Shown here one piece after another: positions 225 to 6,075 of a stretch of 6,093 nt of DNA. Source of the DNA: Lachnospiraceae bacterium. Its GTDB lineage: Bacteria; Bacillota_A; Clostridia; Lachnospirales; Lachnospiraceae. Location of the stretch: the NCBI GenBank assembly GCA_017542725.1, contig JAFXWR010000237.1, positions 1-6,093 of the forward strand, read 5' to 3'. The notes beneath the pieces were generated by a model. The model saw only the letters and a list, made by a program, of their open reading frames with translations, ran no database searches and was not told where the DNA came from. The position numbers and the translations under genes were made by a program. Position 1 is the stretch's first letter; the number at the start of each line of letters is the position of its first letter.

Positions 225-250
225 AAAAAGGGACGACAGGATGTCGTCCC
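225..250 (-). terminator. Intrinsic terminator of the surface-protein gene
   Basis: In the minus-strand transcript a perfect 8-bp stem (GGGACGAC / GTCGTCCC) with loop AUCCU is followed at once by UUUUUAUUG. It begins about 33 nt after the stop codon. There is no T-run on the plus strand, so it should act in the minus direction only. The hairpin is supplied by a repeat element, so the element also serves as a terminator here. Confidence 0.85.
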
Positions 251-254
251 CTAC
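230..254 (-). repeat. Palindromic repeat element, perfect-stem variant
   Basis: On the minus strand it reads GTAGGGGACGAC, the loop ATCCT, then GTCGTCCC. The GTAGGGG head and CCC tail match the other two copies, and AATGTAGGGG is shared with the neighbouring copy. The inner arm is different and pairs without mismatch over 8 bp. It forms the hairpin of the terminator. Confidence 0.75.
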
Positions 255-258
255 ATTT

Positions 259-281
259 GGGCTCGCAGTGCTCGCCCCTAC
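259..281 (-). repeat. Palindromic repeat element, intergenic copy next to the stop codon
   Basis: On the minus strand it reads GTAGGGGCGAGC, the loop ACT, then GCGAGCCC. It begins one base after the TAA stop of the surface-protein gene. The arms pair as GGGC/GCCC and GC/GC around a symmetric GA/GA internal mismatch with a three-base loop. The same mismatch is kept in the coding copy at 5600-5622. It is followed, after AAAT, by a second member of the family (230-254). Confidence 0.8.
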
Positions 282-282
282 A

Positions 283-3200
283 TTATACTCCTGGTCCTAC
301 CACTTGAGTTGATAAGAATGTCGCTGGACCTGCTTGAGCTGCTGGCGCTGCTGGGCCTACTTGCATTGCCTGTGCTGGTTGTGGTCCTACGAATGCCGCT
401 GTCGCTGCATCTTGGATAGTCTTTACAGCTGCTTCTGCACTATATGTCATATTTGTAAGCGCACCGCTTGCATTAAATGTCATAGTGAGTCCGCCGATTG
501 TGATTGTCTGGTTACATACCATCTGACCATATCCAGCTCCTCTTTCTTCGCTTAAGTAGTATGTGTAATTGCCATCTTGAACTAAACCTGTCTGCATATA
601 ACCATTTGCATCAAACTTATACCATCCTGTCTGACCTGCATCATTAGTTACTGCTTGCCATACGTCTTTTACATTTTCACGTGTCATAAATGTCGTTACT
701 TGAAGTGTTACATTTCCGTTTGCATCTGTATTCCATTTTGCTTCATTTGATGGTAAATTGTATTCTGAAATTGCTGTTGTGTTTGCTGTTATTGATGGGT
801 TTTCCTTTACTTGATTTGCTAATGCAGCATATTGTTCTGCTATATTCATACCTGCTTGCACTTCTGCAACTGCTTGTTGAACTTGACTACTATTTGCTGC
901 ATCAGCAGATATACCTGCTGCAGCTACCATTTGAGTTACTTGAACTTGTGTTTGTTGTTTTACTGCTTCGCTCACATTAGTTTGAGTAAATTGTTGTGTT
1001 GCGTCACCTGTAAATCCTGACTCTGGTCCTACACCTTGAACTGTGCTAGCTCCTGGTGTGTTTGCATCTTGTGCTGGGACTGCACCACCGCCTCCACCGC
1101 CGCCGCCACCATTTCCTGGGCTGCTATTACTATTTCGATTAACTGATGGCTGCGCATTTTGTTTGCCGTTTTTCGACCATATACAATATAAGTATTCATC
1201 TCCAGCTATAAATACATTACTTGCTAATGATCCAGATAAGTCTTTATATCTTGAATAACCAACAAGAGTATATCCAGATCTTCTTGGCATAACAATTCCA
1301 ATTATCTTATCTGACGCTGTTCCTCCTGGGACATTTTCATATACCATCAAAGTGCTACTTTCTTGATGTACTTTTACTCCGCCGCTTGTTCCTTTATCTA
1401 CAACTTTACCATATGTTCCACCATTTGCGTCTATTTTTACAGTAAAATTACCTTTTACCATAAGTGGTGTAAATACGTCTCCATCTTTTATAGGAGCATT
1501 CATATCTACATCCTTCATGTCTTTTGTGTTCTTTCTTGGTGCTAATTTTGAAGCTGGTTCTTCATACTTCCAACCACAAAGTGCATATCCATACTCACTT
1601 CTATATCTATAATCTTGTTTTTCTATATAGTCAAACCACTCTCCAAATGTCATACCCTCTTTTACAGTTTGAGTCCAAGGTCCACCGCTATGATAACTTG
1701 CATTCCATCCCACAAAGTCTCTTATATCTGCTACATAGTCGTGAGGCAGTATTGCTCCCTTTATATTTGGTGCTTTTACGAATGTCAATGCACCTAAACT
1801 ATTTGATGGGTCTGTAAGTTTTACTGTAAATGTAACTGTTCTATCTACATACAAAGCTTTTAATACTATTTCATACTTTATCTCATCATCAATATAATGC
1901 ATATCGTCGCCAAAATGATTATCTTTTGTGTATTCTATATTGTAACGCTGTCTATGTAATTGTACTTCCCACTTATCAAATACTTTATTGTCAAGTGTAG
2001 GCTCTTCATATGATTTTTCATCATCTTTAATATTTGAAAGTAATTGCATATGTGGGACATTTTCAAATGTCTTTGTCTTGCTACCATCTCCAAACTTTCC
2101 TTCACCTGCATCAAATACCAAAGTAGCTTTAATATCTGTCCACTGCGCAGTAAACTTAGCTTCTTTTACTTTATCTTTGTCATAGCTTGTAGCTATTCTA
2201 TATTTATCAGTTACTTGCTCTCCTTTGTCATCTATCCAACCTACGAATGATAATTCACTACGGCTTGCTTTTGGAACCATGTTTTTAATATCTTTAAAGT
2301 ATGTTGCATAAGGAACTGTAAATGTTGATTCACCAATAAGTTCTCCACCATTTGCATCAAATGTAATAGTTGTATTTAATGGTTCTACTATAAGTTTACA
2401 TTTTATATGTCCCTCTATCTCAGTTTCAGGAGTTACATCTACACCATTCTCACCAAAAATTTTTATGCCTGTTATCTTGTATCCTTTTTCTGGTTGATTT
2501 TCAAGAGAGAAATCAAACATATTTTTGTATTTTTCTAAGTTAAAATGATCGCAATCTTTTAACTTTTGACCCATTTCACCATTAAAGGCTGCATAAGCTT
2601 CTTCTTTTCCATCTATCTCATAATAAAAGCTATATGTGTATTTTAGCACTGACCATTTTAAATGTATAATAGTATCTGTATTTAATACATAATTTCTATA
2701 TACTTCGTCACTATATTCACCGGTTTTGTCATTATAATTGAAAAACCATGCTGCTGCATTGGTTCTTATTGGGCTATATTGATAACCTTTTCTATAAAAA
2801 CTTGGAATATCTTTTTCAATGTCATCTATAGTTACTCCTTGTGGCACCATCAAAACTATATCTTTCATTTCAACTACATTATAAACTGGGTTTCCGTCTT
2901 CATCTTTAGTTTCTTCAATAGTCTCTGCACCATGTGTCTTAATAGTTAATTTAACATTTTTTGTTGCATCTATATATGATGCTACAAGACGAGTGTCCTT
3001 CTCTATAGCTTCATGCTCTCCAAAATATCTTACATCATTACCTTCTGCATCTACAAGTCTCCAACCTGCAAATACTTTGCTTGCATCACTTGGAGTTGGC
3101 ACTTCATAACCAGCACCTACATATTCTTTTATAGGTGTTATAGTATCAATTAATATGTTTTCAATTACTTTTTCTTTGCTATTATCAGCAAAATGTCCGT

Positions 3201-6075
3201 CTCCTGCATCAAGTGTGAGGTTAGCAGTAAACAATGCAACAACATCCATTGCTGACTTGTATGGTACAAATATTTTACTTCTATAATGGCTATTCTCATC
3301 AACCACAAGAGCGGTATCTCTATTAACTATAAGATTGTCCAAATCAAGATACTTAAACCACTGACCTGCAGCATAATTCAAATCATCAGTTCTTGTGCAT
3401 TGAACATATTTAAACCAAGTATCAAGTCCTGGTTTTGAAAATCCTACAATTGTTGGCATACCTTTATTAAAATATTCTTCAAAACTATCTACAGAAAGAG
3501 GTGGAACTCCACCAAATTTACCAACATCCAAGAAGTTAACTAGTGTTTTGTTAATCTTGTCATGGTCTACCTGATACCAACCAGCAAAATGGTATCCTTG
3601 TTTTGCATATTTATCAAAATCTGCATTATAAAGTTCAGTAACATTACTAATTGGTGTTCCTGAACCTAATTCCAAATACAATTTTTGTTTGTCAAAACTA
3701 AATACTGGGAATGGTGAATACATTTGAACTTGCATTGGTATTCTTCTTACATGCGGTGTAAATACATGTGGTTCAGCTCTATAAAGGTCTCCACCATACA
3801 ACCATGTATCTGCATATTTCCTGCCTTTATTATCTACATAAAAATTTTCACCATTTTCAAAGATATGCTTTCTCGTTTCATGGAGGCCATCTACATCACA
3901 CATCAATACATGTTCACATCCACCATACTTTTCCCTCTTTGGCTGCCAACCTATCGGATCACCGCTTTCTGGGAAATAAACTGAAGATATATCATTTGCA
4001 CCATGTTCTTCATGTAGCCAGCTATGAAATTCATAATTATAATCATCTACTTCACCATCATTATTTAAACATATAGGGTCTTCATAGCCTTCACAATCAT
4101 ATAAACTTCCTTCATAACAATCTTGAAAAACATCTTTGCCTTGCTTCACATCTCTTGCAGGAAAATCTATAGTAAACTCTTCTCTGCCACTTGCATACTT
4201 CATATTAGGTCCTGATTTAAATGTAAGTTTAAGAGGTTTCTTTTTCCAAACTGCAGTAAACTCCATAGGTCCTTCAACTATAATCTCACTAAAATCTACT
4301 GGTTTAAAATTTATATATTTTGAGTTAAGTCTATCTGGATGTTTTCCCTCTTGCCAACCAAGAAGGTCTCTATCATAAGCAACAGGAAGTTCAAATCCTA
4401 CTTCTTCTAAAGCTTCTGTTATAGTTTTACCTTTTAATGCAAAAATTTTTCTAGTTTTTCTAGCACTATAATCTCTTTTCTTTCCAAGTCTATCCGTAAA
4501 TATATATTTTGCAGAATCGTCAGGGAAAACTCCTGTTTCATATGCTATACTTGCAGCAGAATCTACTGCCACATGGAAATATCCCCCAGCATTAAGTGTT
4601 ATAAGGTATCTATCTTCCTCGTAGTGAGCTATATATTCTTCATTCCAACATATTGATGCTACTTTTTCATCTACATCCAAACCAAAAACAATTTCTCCTG
4701 GATTAGCAATATTTATGTCTTTATAATATGGGTCATATGGCTCTTTATCTATAAGTGGAACCCACCATCTTTCAAATCTCATATCCTTCATAGGTATTGG
4801 CTCTTTATAATTTGGCAATTTATGTATTGCTGTTCCTGGTTTACAGTATCCCATGTCATAAACTTTTTTTCTATTTTCCTCTATATCTTCTGCACCTTCA
4901 TCAAGGTAATAACCCATATCCCCTGCATTTAATTTTACATGTATACTTGCTACTTTATATACAGGAGTAATATATGGATCATGAGCATTGCCAGATAAAA
5001 CAGCCTGGTCTACAAAAGTATCTGTATCTTTTATAATATCGTTCTTCCCATTAAAGCACCATCCTAAAAGTTCAAGGCAATCATATACCGCTGGATATGT
5101 ATCTTTTGTATATGCAACTATACCATTTTCTTTTATAGTATCTAATATATTGGCATCATAAGGAAACTCTATAAAACTTTTACCATCTGACTCTACGCCA
5201 TTTACTAATACATGTTTTTCGATTCTAACTTTATATGTTTCTGGTTCCCATTTAGCATATATAGTTTTATCTTCTGTGAGGTCAACTATATCAGTTTCTT
5301 TTATCAATTCACCATCTCTCTCAAAAGAGTAACCAAGTAATTTGTATCCTCCTCTATGAAAGAGAATATCTTTATCAAACTCTCCGTACTCTTTGCCGTT
5401 TTCAACAACCTTGGTCTCTGGTATTGTGTAACCAGCTTCTGCTGAAACATCTGTACTTCCATTACCACCATGTGATTTATCATTCCAATTATAAGTGAGT
5501 GTGAATGTATTTACGCCATCACCAAAAAGAGCATCGCTTGCACTTGCGATGGTTTCTTTGACCTCTTCTACAACTATCTCTTCTACAGTTGTCTCTTCAG
5601 GGCTCGCTGAGCTCGCCCCTACGGATTCGTTTTCCTCTGCAGATTCGTTTTCTTCTACGGATTCGTTTTTCTCTGAAGATTCGTTTTCTTCTACAGATTC
5701 GTTTTCCTCTACAGATTCGTCTTCCTCTACAGATTCGTTTTCCTCTACAGATTCGTTTTCCTCTACAGATTCATTTTCTTCTACAGATTCGTTTTCTTCT
5801 ACAGGTGTCTCATCTTCCTCTGGCTCTTCAGAATTTTCTTTTTCATTAGAGATTTCTTCTTCAGAGTTCTCTTCCTCGTTCTCAACTTTTTCTTCTGCAG
5901 GATTCAAAAGTTCATCTTGATTATTTTCTACAAGATTTTCACTCTTCTCATCCTTTGCCATCTCTACGACAGCGTCAATTGAATTGGCAAGTGTGTGTAT
6001 CCCTGCACTTGTCATTACCATCGCAACAATCAATAAGATTGATGTGGCTTTCTTGATTAATCTTCCAATGCTCAT
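283..6075 (-). CDS. Large secreted surface protein with diverged InlB-type B-repeats and one C-terminal cell-wall-binding unit
   Basis: Complete 1930-residue ORF that starts at an ATG behind a good ribosome binding site and ends with TAA. Residues 1-30 are a signal peptide: basic GRLIKKA, a hydrophobic core at about 11-22, likely cleavage after HTLA. Residues 36-175 are acidic, with ten hexapeptides at 92-151. About 190-1635 is a chain of Listeria-Bacteroides (InlB B / Flg_new-like) units, recognised by starts such as FDANGG (1239-1244), LNAGG (494-498) and IDANGG (1548-1553), a central GY..x.GW, and ends such as IYAKW (272-276), FTAVW (606-610), FTAQW (1308-1312) and LYCIW (1629-1633). Many units are badly eroded. 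Nine glycines follow (1656-1664), then a Q/A-rich stretch, a cell-wall-binding unit (about 1802-1874) and a GP-rich tail. There is no LPXTG or membrane anchor, so non-covalent wall attachment or release is inferred. Proteins of this type act outside the cell, often in adhesion; no enzymatic domain is seen and the ligand is unknown. It appears to be transcribed alone, with its own terminator. Confidence 0.93.
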   Translation of the reverse strand: MSIGRLIKKATSILLIVAMVMTSAGIHTLANSIDAVVEMAKDEKSENLVENNQDELLNPAEEKVENEEENSEEEISNEKENSEEPEEDETPVEENESVEENESVEENESVEENESVEEDESVEENESVEENESSEKNESVEENESAEENESVGASSASPEETTVEEIVVEEVKETIASASDALFGDGVNTFTLTYNWNDKSHGGNGSTDVSAEAGYTIPETKVVENGKEYGEFDKDILFHRGGYKLLGYSFERDGELIKETDIVDLTEDKTIYAKWEPETYKVRIEKHVLVNGVESDGKSFIEFPYDANILDTIKENGIVAYTKDTYPAVYDCLELLGWCFNGKNDIIKDTDTFVDQAVLSGNAHDPYITPVYKVASIHVKLNAGDMGYYLDEGAEDIEENRKKVYDMGYCKPGTAIHKLPNYKEPIPMKDMRFERWWVPLIDKEPYDPYYKDINIANPGEIVFGLDVDEKVASICWNEEYIAHYEEDRYLITLNAGGYFHVAVDSAASIAYETGVFPDDSAKYIFTDRLGKKRDYSARKTRKIFALKGKTITEALEEVGFELPVAYDRDLLGWQEGKHPDRLNSKYINFKPVDFSEIIVEGPMEFTAVWKKKPLKLTFKSGPNMKYASGREEFTIDFPARDVKQGKDVFQDCYEGSLYDCEGYEDPICLNNDGEVDDYNYEFHSWLHEEHGANDISSVYFPESGDPIGWQPKREKYGGCEHVLMCDVDGLHETRKHIFENGENFYVDNKGRKYADTWLYGGDLYRAEPHVFTPHVRRIPMQVQMYSPFPVFSFDKQKLYLELGSGTPISNVTELYNADFDKYAKQGYHFAGWYQVDHDKINKTLVNFLDVGKFGGVPPLSVDSFEEYFNKGMPTIVGFSKPGLDTWFKYVQCTRTDDLNYAAGQWFKYLDLDNLIVNRDTALVVDENSHYRSKIFVPYKSAMDVVALFTANLTLDAGDGHFADNSKEKVIENILIDTITPIKEYVGAGYEVPTPSDASKVFAGWRLVDAEGNDVRYFGEHEAIEKDTRLVASYIDATKNVKLTIKTHGAETIEETKDEDGNPVYNVVEMKDIVLMVPQGVTIDDIEKDIPSFYRKGYQYSPIRTNAAAWFFNYNDKTGEYSDEVYRNYVLNTDTIIHLKWSVLKYTYSFYYEIDGKEEAYAAFNGEMGQKLKDCDHFNLEKYKNMFDFSLENQPEKGYKITGIKIFGENGVDVTPETEIEGHIKCKLIVEPLNTTITFDANGGELIGESTFTVPYATYFKDIKNMVPKASRSELSFVGWIDDKGEQVTDKYRIATSYDKDKVKEAKFTAQWTDIKATLVFDAGEGKFGDGSKTKTFENVPHMQLLSNIKDDEKSYEEPTLDNKVFDKWEVQLHRQRYNIEYTKDNHFGDDMHYIDDEIKYEIVLKALYVDRTVTFTVKLTDPSNSLGALTFVKAPNIKGAILPHDYVADIRDFVGWNASYHSGGPWTQTVKEGMTFGEWFDYIEKQDYRYRSEYGYALCGWKYEEPASKLAPRKNTKDMKDVDMNAPIKDGDVFTPLMVKGNFTVKIDANGGTYGKVVDKGTSGGVKVHQESSTLMVYENVPGGTASDKIIGIVMPRRSGYTLVGYSRYKDLSGSLASNVFIAGDEYLYCIWSKNGKQNAQPSVNRNSNSSPGNGGGGGGGGGAVPAQDANTPGASTVQGVGPESGFTGDATQQFTQTNVSEAVKQQTQVQVTQMVAAAGISADAANSSQVQQAVAEVQAGMNIAEQYAALANQVKENPSITANTTAISEYNLPSNEAKWNTDANGNVTLQVTTFMTRENVKDVWQAVTNDAGQTGWYKFDANGYMQTGLVQDGNYTYYLSEERGAGYGQMVCNQTITIGGLTMTFNASGALTNMTYSAEAAVKTIQDAATAAFVGPQPAQAMQVGPAAPAAQAGPATFLSTQVVGPGV
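286..393 (-). other. Region coding for a C-terminal Gly-Pro repeat tail
   Basis: The last 36 residues (1895-1930) carry four GP motifs (G at 1897, 1907, 1916 and 1927), three of them VGP, separated by Ala/Gln-rich spacers of similar length, and the protein ends VVGPGV. A further VGP stands at 1682-1684. The tail has no charged residues and no hydrophobic anchor. I do not recognise it as a known sorting signal. Confidence 0.6.
454..672 (-). other. Region coding for a single cell-wall-binding (choline/glucan-binding type) unit
   Basis: Residues about 1802-1874 contain TGWYKFDANGYMQTG, then YTYYLSEE, a Gly-rich turn and TMTFNASGALT. This is the pattern of the CW_binding_1 / glucan-binding repeat family, in which aromatic residues and GxxxTG turns bind wall polymer or glycan. 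Two such half-units are present, where most family members carry several in tandem, so binding may be weak. In a protein without LPXTG this is the only recognisable attachment module. Confidence 0.65.
1084..1110 (-). repeat. Poly-glycine linker (nine GGN codons)
   Basis: Nine consecutive glycine codons (residues 1656-1664) with mixed third bases (GGT, GGC, GGA). They separate the last B-repeat unit from the C-terminal part, within a Ser/Asn/Pro/Gly-rich stretch of about 1637-1695. Such linkers before cell-wall-binding repeats are common in Lachnospiraceae surface proteins and act as a flexible hinge. The GC-rich run could be slippage-prone, in steps of three. Confidence 0.85.
5600..5622 (-). 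repeat. Palindromic repeat element, in-frame copy inside the coding sequence
   Basis: Read on the minus strand this 23-mer is GTAGGGGCGAGC, the loop TCA, then GCGAGCCC. It matches the copy at 259-281 at 21 of 23 positions; the only differences are the two outer bases of the loop. It supplies residues 152-159 (V-G-A-S-S-A-S-P, the last codon completed by the next base), a neutral patch in an otherwise acidic Glu-rich stretch. It directly abuts the tenth VEENES unit, and its GTA codon occupies the place of the next unit's Val. This suggests a noncoding repeat that inserted here and is now translated. Confidence 0.8.
5623..5802 (-). repeat. Ten tandem 18-bp units coding for VEENES-type hexapeptides
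   Basis: Exactly ten 18-bp units code for residues 92-151. In order they read VEENES four times, VEEDES, VEENES twice, SEKNES, VEENES and AEENES. Most differences between units are silent (for example GAG against GAA), and the substitutions cluster in the units nearer the C-terminus. The product is a highly acidic, probably extended stalk between the signal peptide and the first B-repeat. Because the unit length is a multiple of three, gain or loss of units by slippage or recombination would change stalk length without breaking the frame. The array ends at base 5623, where the palindromic element begins. Confidence 0.92.

What the first reader, a model, noticed from the sequence alone, without database searches (positions are those of the whole stretch)
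5600..5622. A mobile-looking palindromic repeat is translated inside the surface-protein gene
The 23-bp element shares 21 of 23 bases with an intergenic copy beside the same gene's stop codon, and the flanks do not match, so the boundaries are sharp. In the coding copy it encodes V-G-A-S-S-A-S-P in the middle of an all-acidic stalk. Its first codon (GTA) coincides with the Val expected to start an eleventh VEENES unit, and EETTVEE follows. A net insertion of 21 bp (7 codons) after a resident GTAG would explain the layout and keep the frame. In this orientation one of the three frames carries a TAG at the element's head, so only two frames could accept it. This resembles in-gene Rickettsia palindromic elements; I know of no description of it in this kind of protein, though that is not checked.
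Basis: partly seen in the sequence, partly recalled or inferred. Interest (0 to 1): 0.75.

Follow-up and report, generated by a model that had tools for sequence, protein, structure and literature searches.

The report
In-frame REP element in surface-protein stalk
A 23-base hairpin of a mobile-type repeat family sits, in frame, inside a giant surface protein of a bacterium; the same family is scattered through related genomes and lies in frame inside ordinary enzymes there, a known kind of event in a bacterial group where I found no report of it.

Summary
Window 5600-5622(-) and 259-281(-) are two copies (21 of 23 bases) of one palindromic element; none is expected by chance. It is a GTAG-type REP (repetitive extragenic palindrome), not a Rickettsia (CGTC-type) element. 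In a Lachnospiraceae-related genus that carries relatives of the window protein's two ends, 11 of 12 genomes hold it (729 places at up to 2 mismatches, reversed controls 0). Y1 transposases (PF01797) occur in 10 of 12; 6 of the 12 matches lie beside copies of the element. In 1.377 Mb of one genome there are 142 copies, 47 inside ORFs of at least 100 aa; 19 of 20 such proteins scanned have Pfam domains. Related species show empty sites in PGI, threonine synthase and LeuRS. Other surface-protein stalks of the genus carry copies too. The three orthologues lack the element, but their stalks cannot be aligned base by base. Intragenic GTAG REPs are in print (PMC3733652). New here: the host group, the free fourth foot base, the fixed G.A internal mismatch.

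The parts
5600..5622 (-). coding copy of the REP element: unpaired foot GTAG, stem GGGC/GCCC, internal GA/GA mismatch, stem GC/GC, loop TCA; encodes VGASSASP (residues 152-159)
259..281 (-). intergenic copy of the same element, 1 nt after the stop codon of the surface-protein gene; loop ACT
230..254 (-). third GTAG-footed hairpin (other stem family: perfect 9-bp stem, loop of 3), head-to-tail with the copy at 259-281 and followed by TTTTT: probable intrinsic terminator; look-alikes at up to 3 mismatches in the sequence held: G403 5, G359 1, G402 1
283..6075 (-). 1930-aa surface-protein ORF: signal-like N terminus, acidic stalk, List_Bact (PF09479) repeat match; N- or C-terminal parts match proteins in all 12 genomes of the genus searched
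5623..5802 (-). ten 18-nt units (VEENES and variants) directly upstream of the coding copy, in register with its GTA

Best explanation
The 23-bp sequence is one copy of a REP family native to the genus of the host. Its form is an unpaired GTAN foot (most often GTAG) followed by a hairpin GGGC-GA-GY-nnn-RC-GA-GCCC with a conserved G.A mismatch. Copies are spread, most likely, as single-stranded hairpins by REP-associated Y1 transposases (RAYTs) encoded in the same genomes. Most land between genes, often just after stop codons. Those that land in genes survive only if the total change keeps the frame and the encoded peptide is tolerated in a loop or linker. In the window one such copy was fixed at the end of the tandem-repeat part of an acidic surface stalk, where a few extra residues cost little. 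It most likely has no function of its own in the protein. Shown: family, structure, copy number, in-frame copies in conserved genes, empty sites in related species, Y1 transposase genes beside copies. Inferred: that these transposases move it, that the window copy is an insertion rather than an ancestral feature, and that it is neutral.
For: Two copies in the window, 0 expected. Family-wide sample: 1 of 397 genomes matched at up to 1 mismatch (G359, 42 places, controls 0). Genus of G359: 11 of 12 genomes, 729 places in all at up to 2 mismatches, reversed controls 0. G359 contigs C1-C5 (1.377 of about 1.9 Mb): 142 copies with the degenerate pattern, 0 in reversed and Markov controls. With those positions left free, the internal mismatch is GA/GA in 75 of 79 and the foot is GTA in 75 of 82; perfect-stem versions 0. 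The free inner pair covaries: T-A 87, C-G 42, T-G 5, C-A 3, G-G 5 of 142. Y1 transposases (PF01797): 10 of 12 genomes, 12 matches. Copies lie within about 70 nt of 5 of the 11 Y1 loci read (L066, L069, L070, L071, L151); the 12th (G401:C3) has listed copies on both sides by coordinates. Four of four Y1 proteins tested match NF047646 REP-associated tyrosine transposase (E 1e-16 to 4e-20). 47 of 142 copies lie inside 29 ORFs of at least 100 aa; 20 of the 29 proteins were scanned and 19 have Pfam domains. Empty sites: PGI (filled in G359 and G404, empty in G403), threonine synthase (filled in G403, empty in G359), LeuRS (filled in G404, empty in G359) (names). Stalk copies: 2 of 12 N-terminal loci read (L026 three, L018 one), plus three in two G359 surface-type proteins; several of these are degenerate by 2-3 bases. 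0 of 3 orthologues carry it. The element uses codons rare in this CDS: GGG 5 of 153 Gly, GCG 12 of 136 Ala, its own included.
Against: No genome is held for the window, so its own copy number and transposase are unknown. The four RAYT-like proteins score 61-72 bits, under NCBIfam's curated cut-off of 80. Six of the 11 Y1 loci read have no copies in the stretch held (L062-L065, L067, L068; some of these stretches are short on one side), and G359, rich in copies, shows no Y1 match (the genome may be incomplete). The fourth foot base is G in only 62 of 142, unlike the GTAG of most described families. The stalk is too variable to prove insertion in this gene. At MnmG and KsgA both G359 and G403 carry copies, so those sites do not show recent movement.
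Confidence: 0.84

Rival explanations
1. The element spreads by template switching, gene conversion or hairpin-driven slippage between copies, not by a RAYT. The flanking partial copies and tandem units would be traces of that.
For: Partial heads lie 18, 20 or 21 nt upstream of some full copies. G404 PGI carries five tandem 18-nt head units before a full copy, and G404 LeuRS two such units before each of its two full copies (sequences). Six of 11 Y1 loci read are not beside copies. G359 has copies but no Y1 match.
Against: Dispersal to unrelated genes and intergenic sites, a conserved unpaired foot and mismatch, a pyrimidine at -1 in 93%, and Y1 genes bordered by copies all fit the RAYT model.
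Confidence: 0.12
2. The copy has been taken into use: as a hinge or signal in the stalk, or as an mRNA hairpin that tunes expression of the long gene.
For: The RNA hairpin is predicted in its context (region z -2.0). Stalk copies recur in several surface proteins.
Against: Copies also sit in unrelated enzymes. Only 2 of 12 stalk loci read have one. The hairpin alone folds little better than shuffles (z -0.9 to -1.6).
Confidence: 0.06
3. It is an in-gene Rickettsia-type palindromic element (RPE), as the first reader suggested by resemblance.
For: It lies in frame inside genes, as RPEs do (PMC3733652, section 15).
Against: The foot is GTAN, not CGTC; the host group is another phylum; copies lie with Y1 transposases, which that paper's Table 1 lists for GTAG and not CGTC repeats.
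Confidence: 0.02

Closest known systems
GTAG-tagged REPs and their RAYT/TnpA_REP transposases (REPtrons)
   Same: Unpaired GTA(G) foot, short imperfect hairpin, tens to hundreds of dispersed copies, copies bordering Y1 transposase genes, some copies inside genes in frame, copies supplying or hugging stop codons (in six G359 copies the TAG or TAA of the foot is the stop).
   Different: Fourth foot base free (G 62, T 45, C 21, A 14 of 142); 2x2 G.A mismatch fixed; a third of the copies in G359 C1-C5 inside ORFs; host related to Lachnospiraceae, while PMC3733652 names Proteobacteria, Cyanobacteria, Chloroflexi and the PVC group for GTAG repeats.
TnpA_REP subclass 2.4 systems (PMC6006769, section 13)
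   Same: Foot of the stem made of G-C pairs; in-frame REP insertions reported; 'double foot' GTAG...CTAC repeats, which also occur in G359 as a separate GGGCGGAT family.
   Different: There the in-frame cases described are in the transposase genes themselves; the subclass of the proteins here was not determined.
Rickettsia palindromic elements (RPE-4 and RPE-6 filed as CGTC REPs in PMC3733652)
   Same: Short palindromes in frame inside conserved proteins.
   Different: CGTC foot, no associated transposase listed, different phylum.

Membership tests
GTAG REP / REPtron | unpaired GTAG tetranucleotide at the 5' foot of the hairpin | tested here: inconclusive
   Both window copies have GTAG. In G359 GTA is nearly fixed (75 of 82 exact hairpins) but the fourth base is G in only 62 of 142.
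GTAG REP / REPtron | short hairpin, stem 5-13 bp, loop 2-20 (PMC3733652 Table 1) | tested here: met
   4 + 2 pairs around a 2x2 mismatch, loop 3.
GTAG REP / REPtron | many dispersed copies in the genome | tested here: met
   8-154 places in 11 of 12 related genomes, controls 0; the window's own genome is not held.
GTAG REP / REPtron | Y1 (HUH) transposase of the RAYT kind flanked by copies | tested here: met
   PF01797 in 10 of 12 genomes; copies beside 5 of 11 loci read; NF047646 hits 4 of 4, all below its cut-off. Met in related genomes, not in the window's own.
GTAG REP / REPtron | transposase binds and cuts the single-stranded repeat | not testable with these tools
   needs purified protein
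Rickettsia palindromic elements / CGTC REPs | CGTC foot | tested here: not met
   foot is GTAN
Rickettsia palindromic elements / CGTC REPs | in-frame copies inside conserved genes | tested here: met
MITE | terminal inverted repeats of an autonomous element and target-site duplication | not tested
   the 23-bp size speaks against it; no duplication search was run

The most novel reading that the evidence does not exclude
REP heads act as seeds of new coding repeats. In this genus the 5' half of the element (GTAGGGGCGAGC plus 6-9 nt) is multiplied in tandem, in frame, in front of a full copy: five 18-nt units in G404 PGI, two before each full copy in G404 LeuRS. The ten VEENES units of the window, which have the same 18-nt period, the same register and 5-8 of 12 bases of the head, would be an old, acid-adapted array of the same origin. 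REP insertion would then be a source of new low-complexity protein segments, surface stalks included.
Probability: 0.17. Interest if true: 0.75.

Novelty: new variant of a known kind. Interest (0 to 1): 0.52.

Why it matters
Coding palindromes are usually discussed for Rickettsia and a few REP-rich species. Here is a genus in which, in the one genome read at length, a third of the copies lie inside ORFs, among them tRNA- and rRNA-modifying enzymes, PGI, AroA and Maf, with related species at hand that show filled and empty sites. That makes two open questions testable by comparison: how REPs enter genes without breaking them, and whether they feed new peptide into proteins. It also warns that family alignments and fold predictions for these proteins contain mobile inserts.

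Tried and rejected
Rickettsia-type origin: rejected, wrong foot. Chance: rejected, controls 0. Known RNA family: one match at E 0.71, far under its cut-off and elsewhere in the window. Copies in IMG/VR viral contigs: 0 exact matches to GTAGGGGCGAGCNNNGCGAGCCC, so no phage route was followed. Guide model in which the fourth foot base pairs with the cut site: no association with -1 (p 0.89) or -2 (p 0.91); there is association with +1 (p 1.2e-5), +2 (0.04) and +3 (0.0011). The +1 effect is avoidance of pairing, 12 of 142 against 33.8 +/- 4.8 in shuffles; the others are unexplained. Exact 21-bp insertion: not supported by empty sites in other genes, untestable in this one. The lengths 33 and 57 nt are seen in DNA alignments; 120 and 150 nt come from protein alignments times three, so being a multiple of 3 is not evidence there. 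Not clean: AroA (net 5 aa against the distant G410), Maf (the G404 allele is longer, net -14 aa), a P-type ATPase against a remote relative (net 17 aa). Six of the 47 in-ORF copies lie within the first 25 residues and may be upstream of the true start. ORFs were called mechanically, without a gene finder; 9 of the 29 ORFs with copies were not scanned against Pfam.

The search for full orthologues among genomes failed: the single-protein scan of genome contigs found none, and the alignment scan found only three repeat-domain matches at 28-36% identity. The genus was reached through one of those (L001, G001) by way of the element itself. A fourth protein hit, P0004, covers 6% of the query and was not counted as an orthologue.
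Full report
What is there. The ORF 283-6075(-) encodes 1930 aa, with a signal-like N terminus, an acidic stalk and a match to the List_Bact repeat PF09479. At residues 152-159 the stalk reads VGASSASP, encoded by 5600-5622(-). A second copy, 21 of 23 bases alike, lies at 259-281(-), 1 nt after the TAA. A mismatch-tolerant scan finds these two only, with none in shuffles. Directly downstream of the second copy is another GTAG-footed hairpin, 230-254(-), followed by TTTTT, which scores as terminator-like.

The element. As single-stranded DNA both copies fold as GTAG foot, GGGC/GCCC stem, GA/GA mismatch, GC/GC, loop of 3. The folding energy by itself is unremarkable (z about -1). The case rests on the family, not on the energy.

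The host. No genome is held for the window. Its protein has three orthologues in the protein collection at 65%, 46% and 46% identity; a fourth hit covers only 6%. The three were read and aligned; none has VGASSASP. An alignment scan of genome contigs gave three weak loci, one titled Lachnospiraceae bacterium. Of 397 genomes drawn from that genome's family, one (G359) has the element, with 42 places at up to 1 mismatch. All 12 genomes of the genus of G359 have matches to the N-terminal or C-terminal parts of the window protein, none to its whole length. L016, for instance, begins MSIGKVIKKFTSILLIVAMIMTSAGI, against MSIGRLIKKATSILLIVAMVMTSAGI in the window. I infer that the window's host is in or near this genus.

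Copies in the genus. Eleven of 12 genomes hold the element (G359 95, G400 37, G401 84, G402 68, G403 117, G404 48, G405 10, G406 96, G407 12, G408 8, G409 154, G410 0; up to 2 mismatches; reversed controls 0). In 1.377 Mb of G359 there are 142 copies with a degenerate pattern, 0 in two controls. With the mismatch left free, GA/GA is found in 75 of 79, and no perfect-stem version exists. With the foot left free, GTA is found in 75 of 82. The free inner pair covaries (T-A 87, C-G 42, other 13). The base before the foot is a pyrimidine in 93%. G410 has no copy and no Y1 match.

Transposases. Y1 transposases (PF01797) are in 10 of 12 genomes, 12 matches. I read 11 loci: in 5 the gene is bordered by copies (L066, L069, L070, L071, L151), in 6 there are none in the stretch held. 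The 12th, G401:C3:3175-3474, has listed copies at 3126-3148 and 3646-3668. Four proteins, three of them from bordered loci, match NF047646 'REP-associated tyrosine transposase' with 61-72 bits, under its cut-off of 80. G359 itself has no Y1 match.

Copies in genes. 47 of 142 G359 copies lie inside 29 ORFs of at least 100 aa, 20 overlap an ORF end and 75 are intergenic, although ORFs cover about 92% of the sequence. So copies are still depleted in genes. 20 of the 29 proteins were scanned with Pfam; 19 have known domains: PGI, KsgA-type dimethylase, MnmG, MnmE, EPSP synthase, Maf, a SpoU methylase, an ACPS-type transferase, NAD(P)H-hydrate dehydratase, argininosuccinate lyase, a P-type ATPase and others. 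Sense phases 0, 1, 2 hold 16, 12 and 4 copies; antisense phases 0, 1, 2 hold 0, 10 and 5. In sense phase 0 the fourth foot base is G in 15 of 16, against 47 of 126 elsewhere (p 1.4e-5). That keeps Gly where other bases give Trp or Arg, so it looks like selection on the peptide.

Filled and empty sites. 36 element-in-frame entries had an alignable relative in another genome. Clear empty sites: PGI filled in G359 (antisense) and in G404 (sense), empty in G403; threonine synthase filled in G403, empty in G359; LeuRS filled twice in G404, empty in G359. The names rest on PF00342, TIGR00260 and TIGR00396 above cut-off and Pfam. The differences are 57, 120, 33 and 150 nt; 57 and 33 were seen in DNA alignments, the other two are protein gaps times three. 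At MnmG and KsgA both G359 and G403 have copies. In Maf the relative without the element has a longer unrelated stretch. Elements thus tend to sit in loops that vary anyway.

The stalk. Of 12 N-terminal loci of surface proteins read, L026 (G402) has three in-frame copies in its stalk and L018 (G403) one. In G359 a 2882-aa protein has two and a 14,215-aa protein one, read antisense. In both G359 proteins, as in the window, the copies stand at or near the end of the tandem part of the stalk. So the window case is one of several. That the copy entered this gene as an insertion is inferred from the family, from its absence in 3 of 3 orthologues and from its rare codons.

Half copies. Partial heads precede some full copies at 18, 20 or 21 nt. 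In mechanically called coding context 13 of 18 such distances are multiples of 3, elsewhere 3 of 10. G404 PGI has five such 18-nt units. The VEENES array shares period and register with them, and 5-8 of 12 head bases. A stalk without an in-frame copy also has six-residue repeats (L020), so a common origin is a possibility only.

What is known. PMC3733652 (abstract, passages, the first of four parts of the Results, section 15 and the first of two parts of the Discussion) describes 24 GTAG families, intragenic copies in several species and Rickettsia elements as CGTC repeats; its list of GTAG phyla does not include Firmicutes, a word with 0 occurrences in its text. PMC6006769 (passages and section 13) reports in-frame REPs in transposase genes. 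PMC8266576 (passages) reports that the foot and a stem bulge are needed for activity of the E. coli enzyme. Ten searches of the open library listed no paper that by title or abstract treats such elements in this group. Two gut-microbiota papers that hold both 'REP-associated tyrosine transposase' and 'Lachnospiraceae' were not opened. Most subscription papers are not held there.

Noticed in passing
window 230-254(-): A third GTAG-footed hairpin of another stem family ends the gene as a probable terminator; five look-alikes occur in the 140 kb of G403:C2 read.
   Followed up: partly
G359:C1:231993-274640 and other genomes of the genus: Very long surface-protein ORFs, 14,215 aa in G359 and an open frame of 14,398 aa in G408, share N-terminal or C-terminal parts with the window protein.
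   Followed up: no
G359 contigs C1-C5: 40 of the 95 copies not wholly inside an ORF lie within 12 nt of a stop codon or overlap it; in six the foot itself supplies the stop. Only 7.8% of intergenic bases lie within 13 nt downstream of a stop.
   Followed up: partly
G359 contigs C1-C5: The fourth foot base avoids pairing with the base just after the hairpin (12 of 142 against 33.8 expected), as if the foot had to stay unpaired.
   Followed up: partly
G359 contigs C1-C5: No in-ORF copy is read in antisense phase 0 (0 of 47), the frame that would give a hydrophobic peptide.
   Followed up: no
G359 (14 places), G407 (5), G403 (5), G404 (3), G402 (1): A second palindrome family, GTAGGGGCGGAT..ATCCGCCC, often with a closing CTAC ('double foot'), coexists in the sequence held.
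   Followed up: no
L062, L063, L064: Longer Y1 proteins (253-264 aa; that of L064 runs to the end of the stretch) with no copies of the element in the stretch held.
   Followed up: no
L069:1223-1465 and L053 (both G409): Dense head-to-tail runs of copies and half copies, in L069 beside a RAYT-type gene, some with a 20-nt spacing.
   Followed up: no
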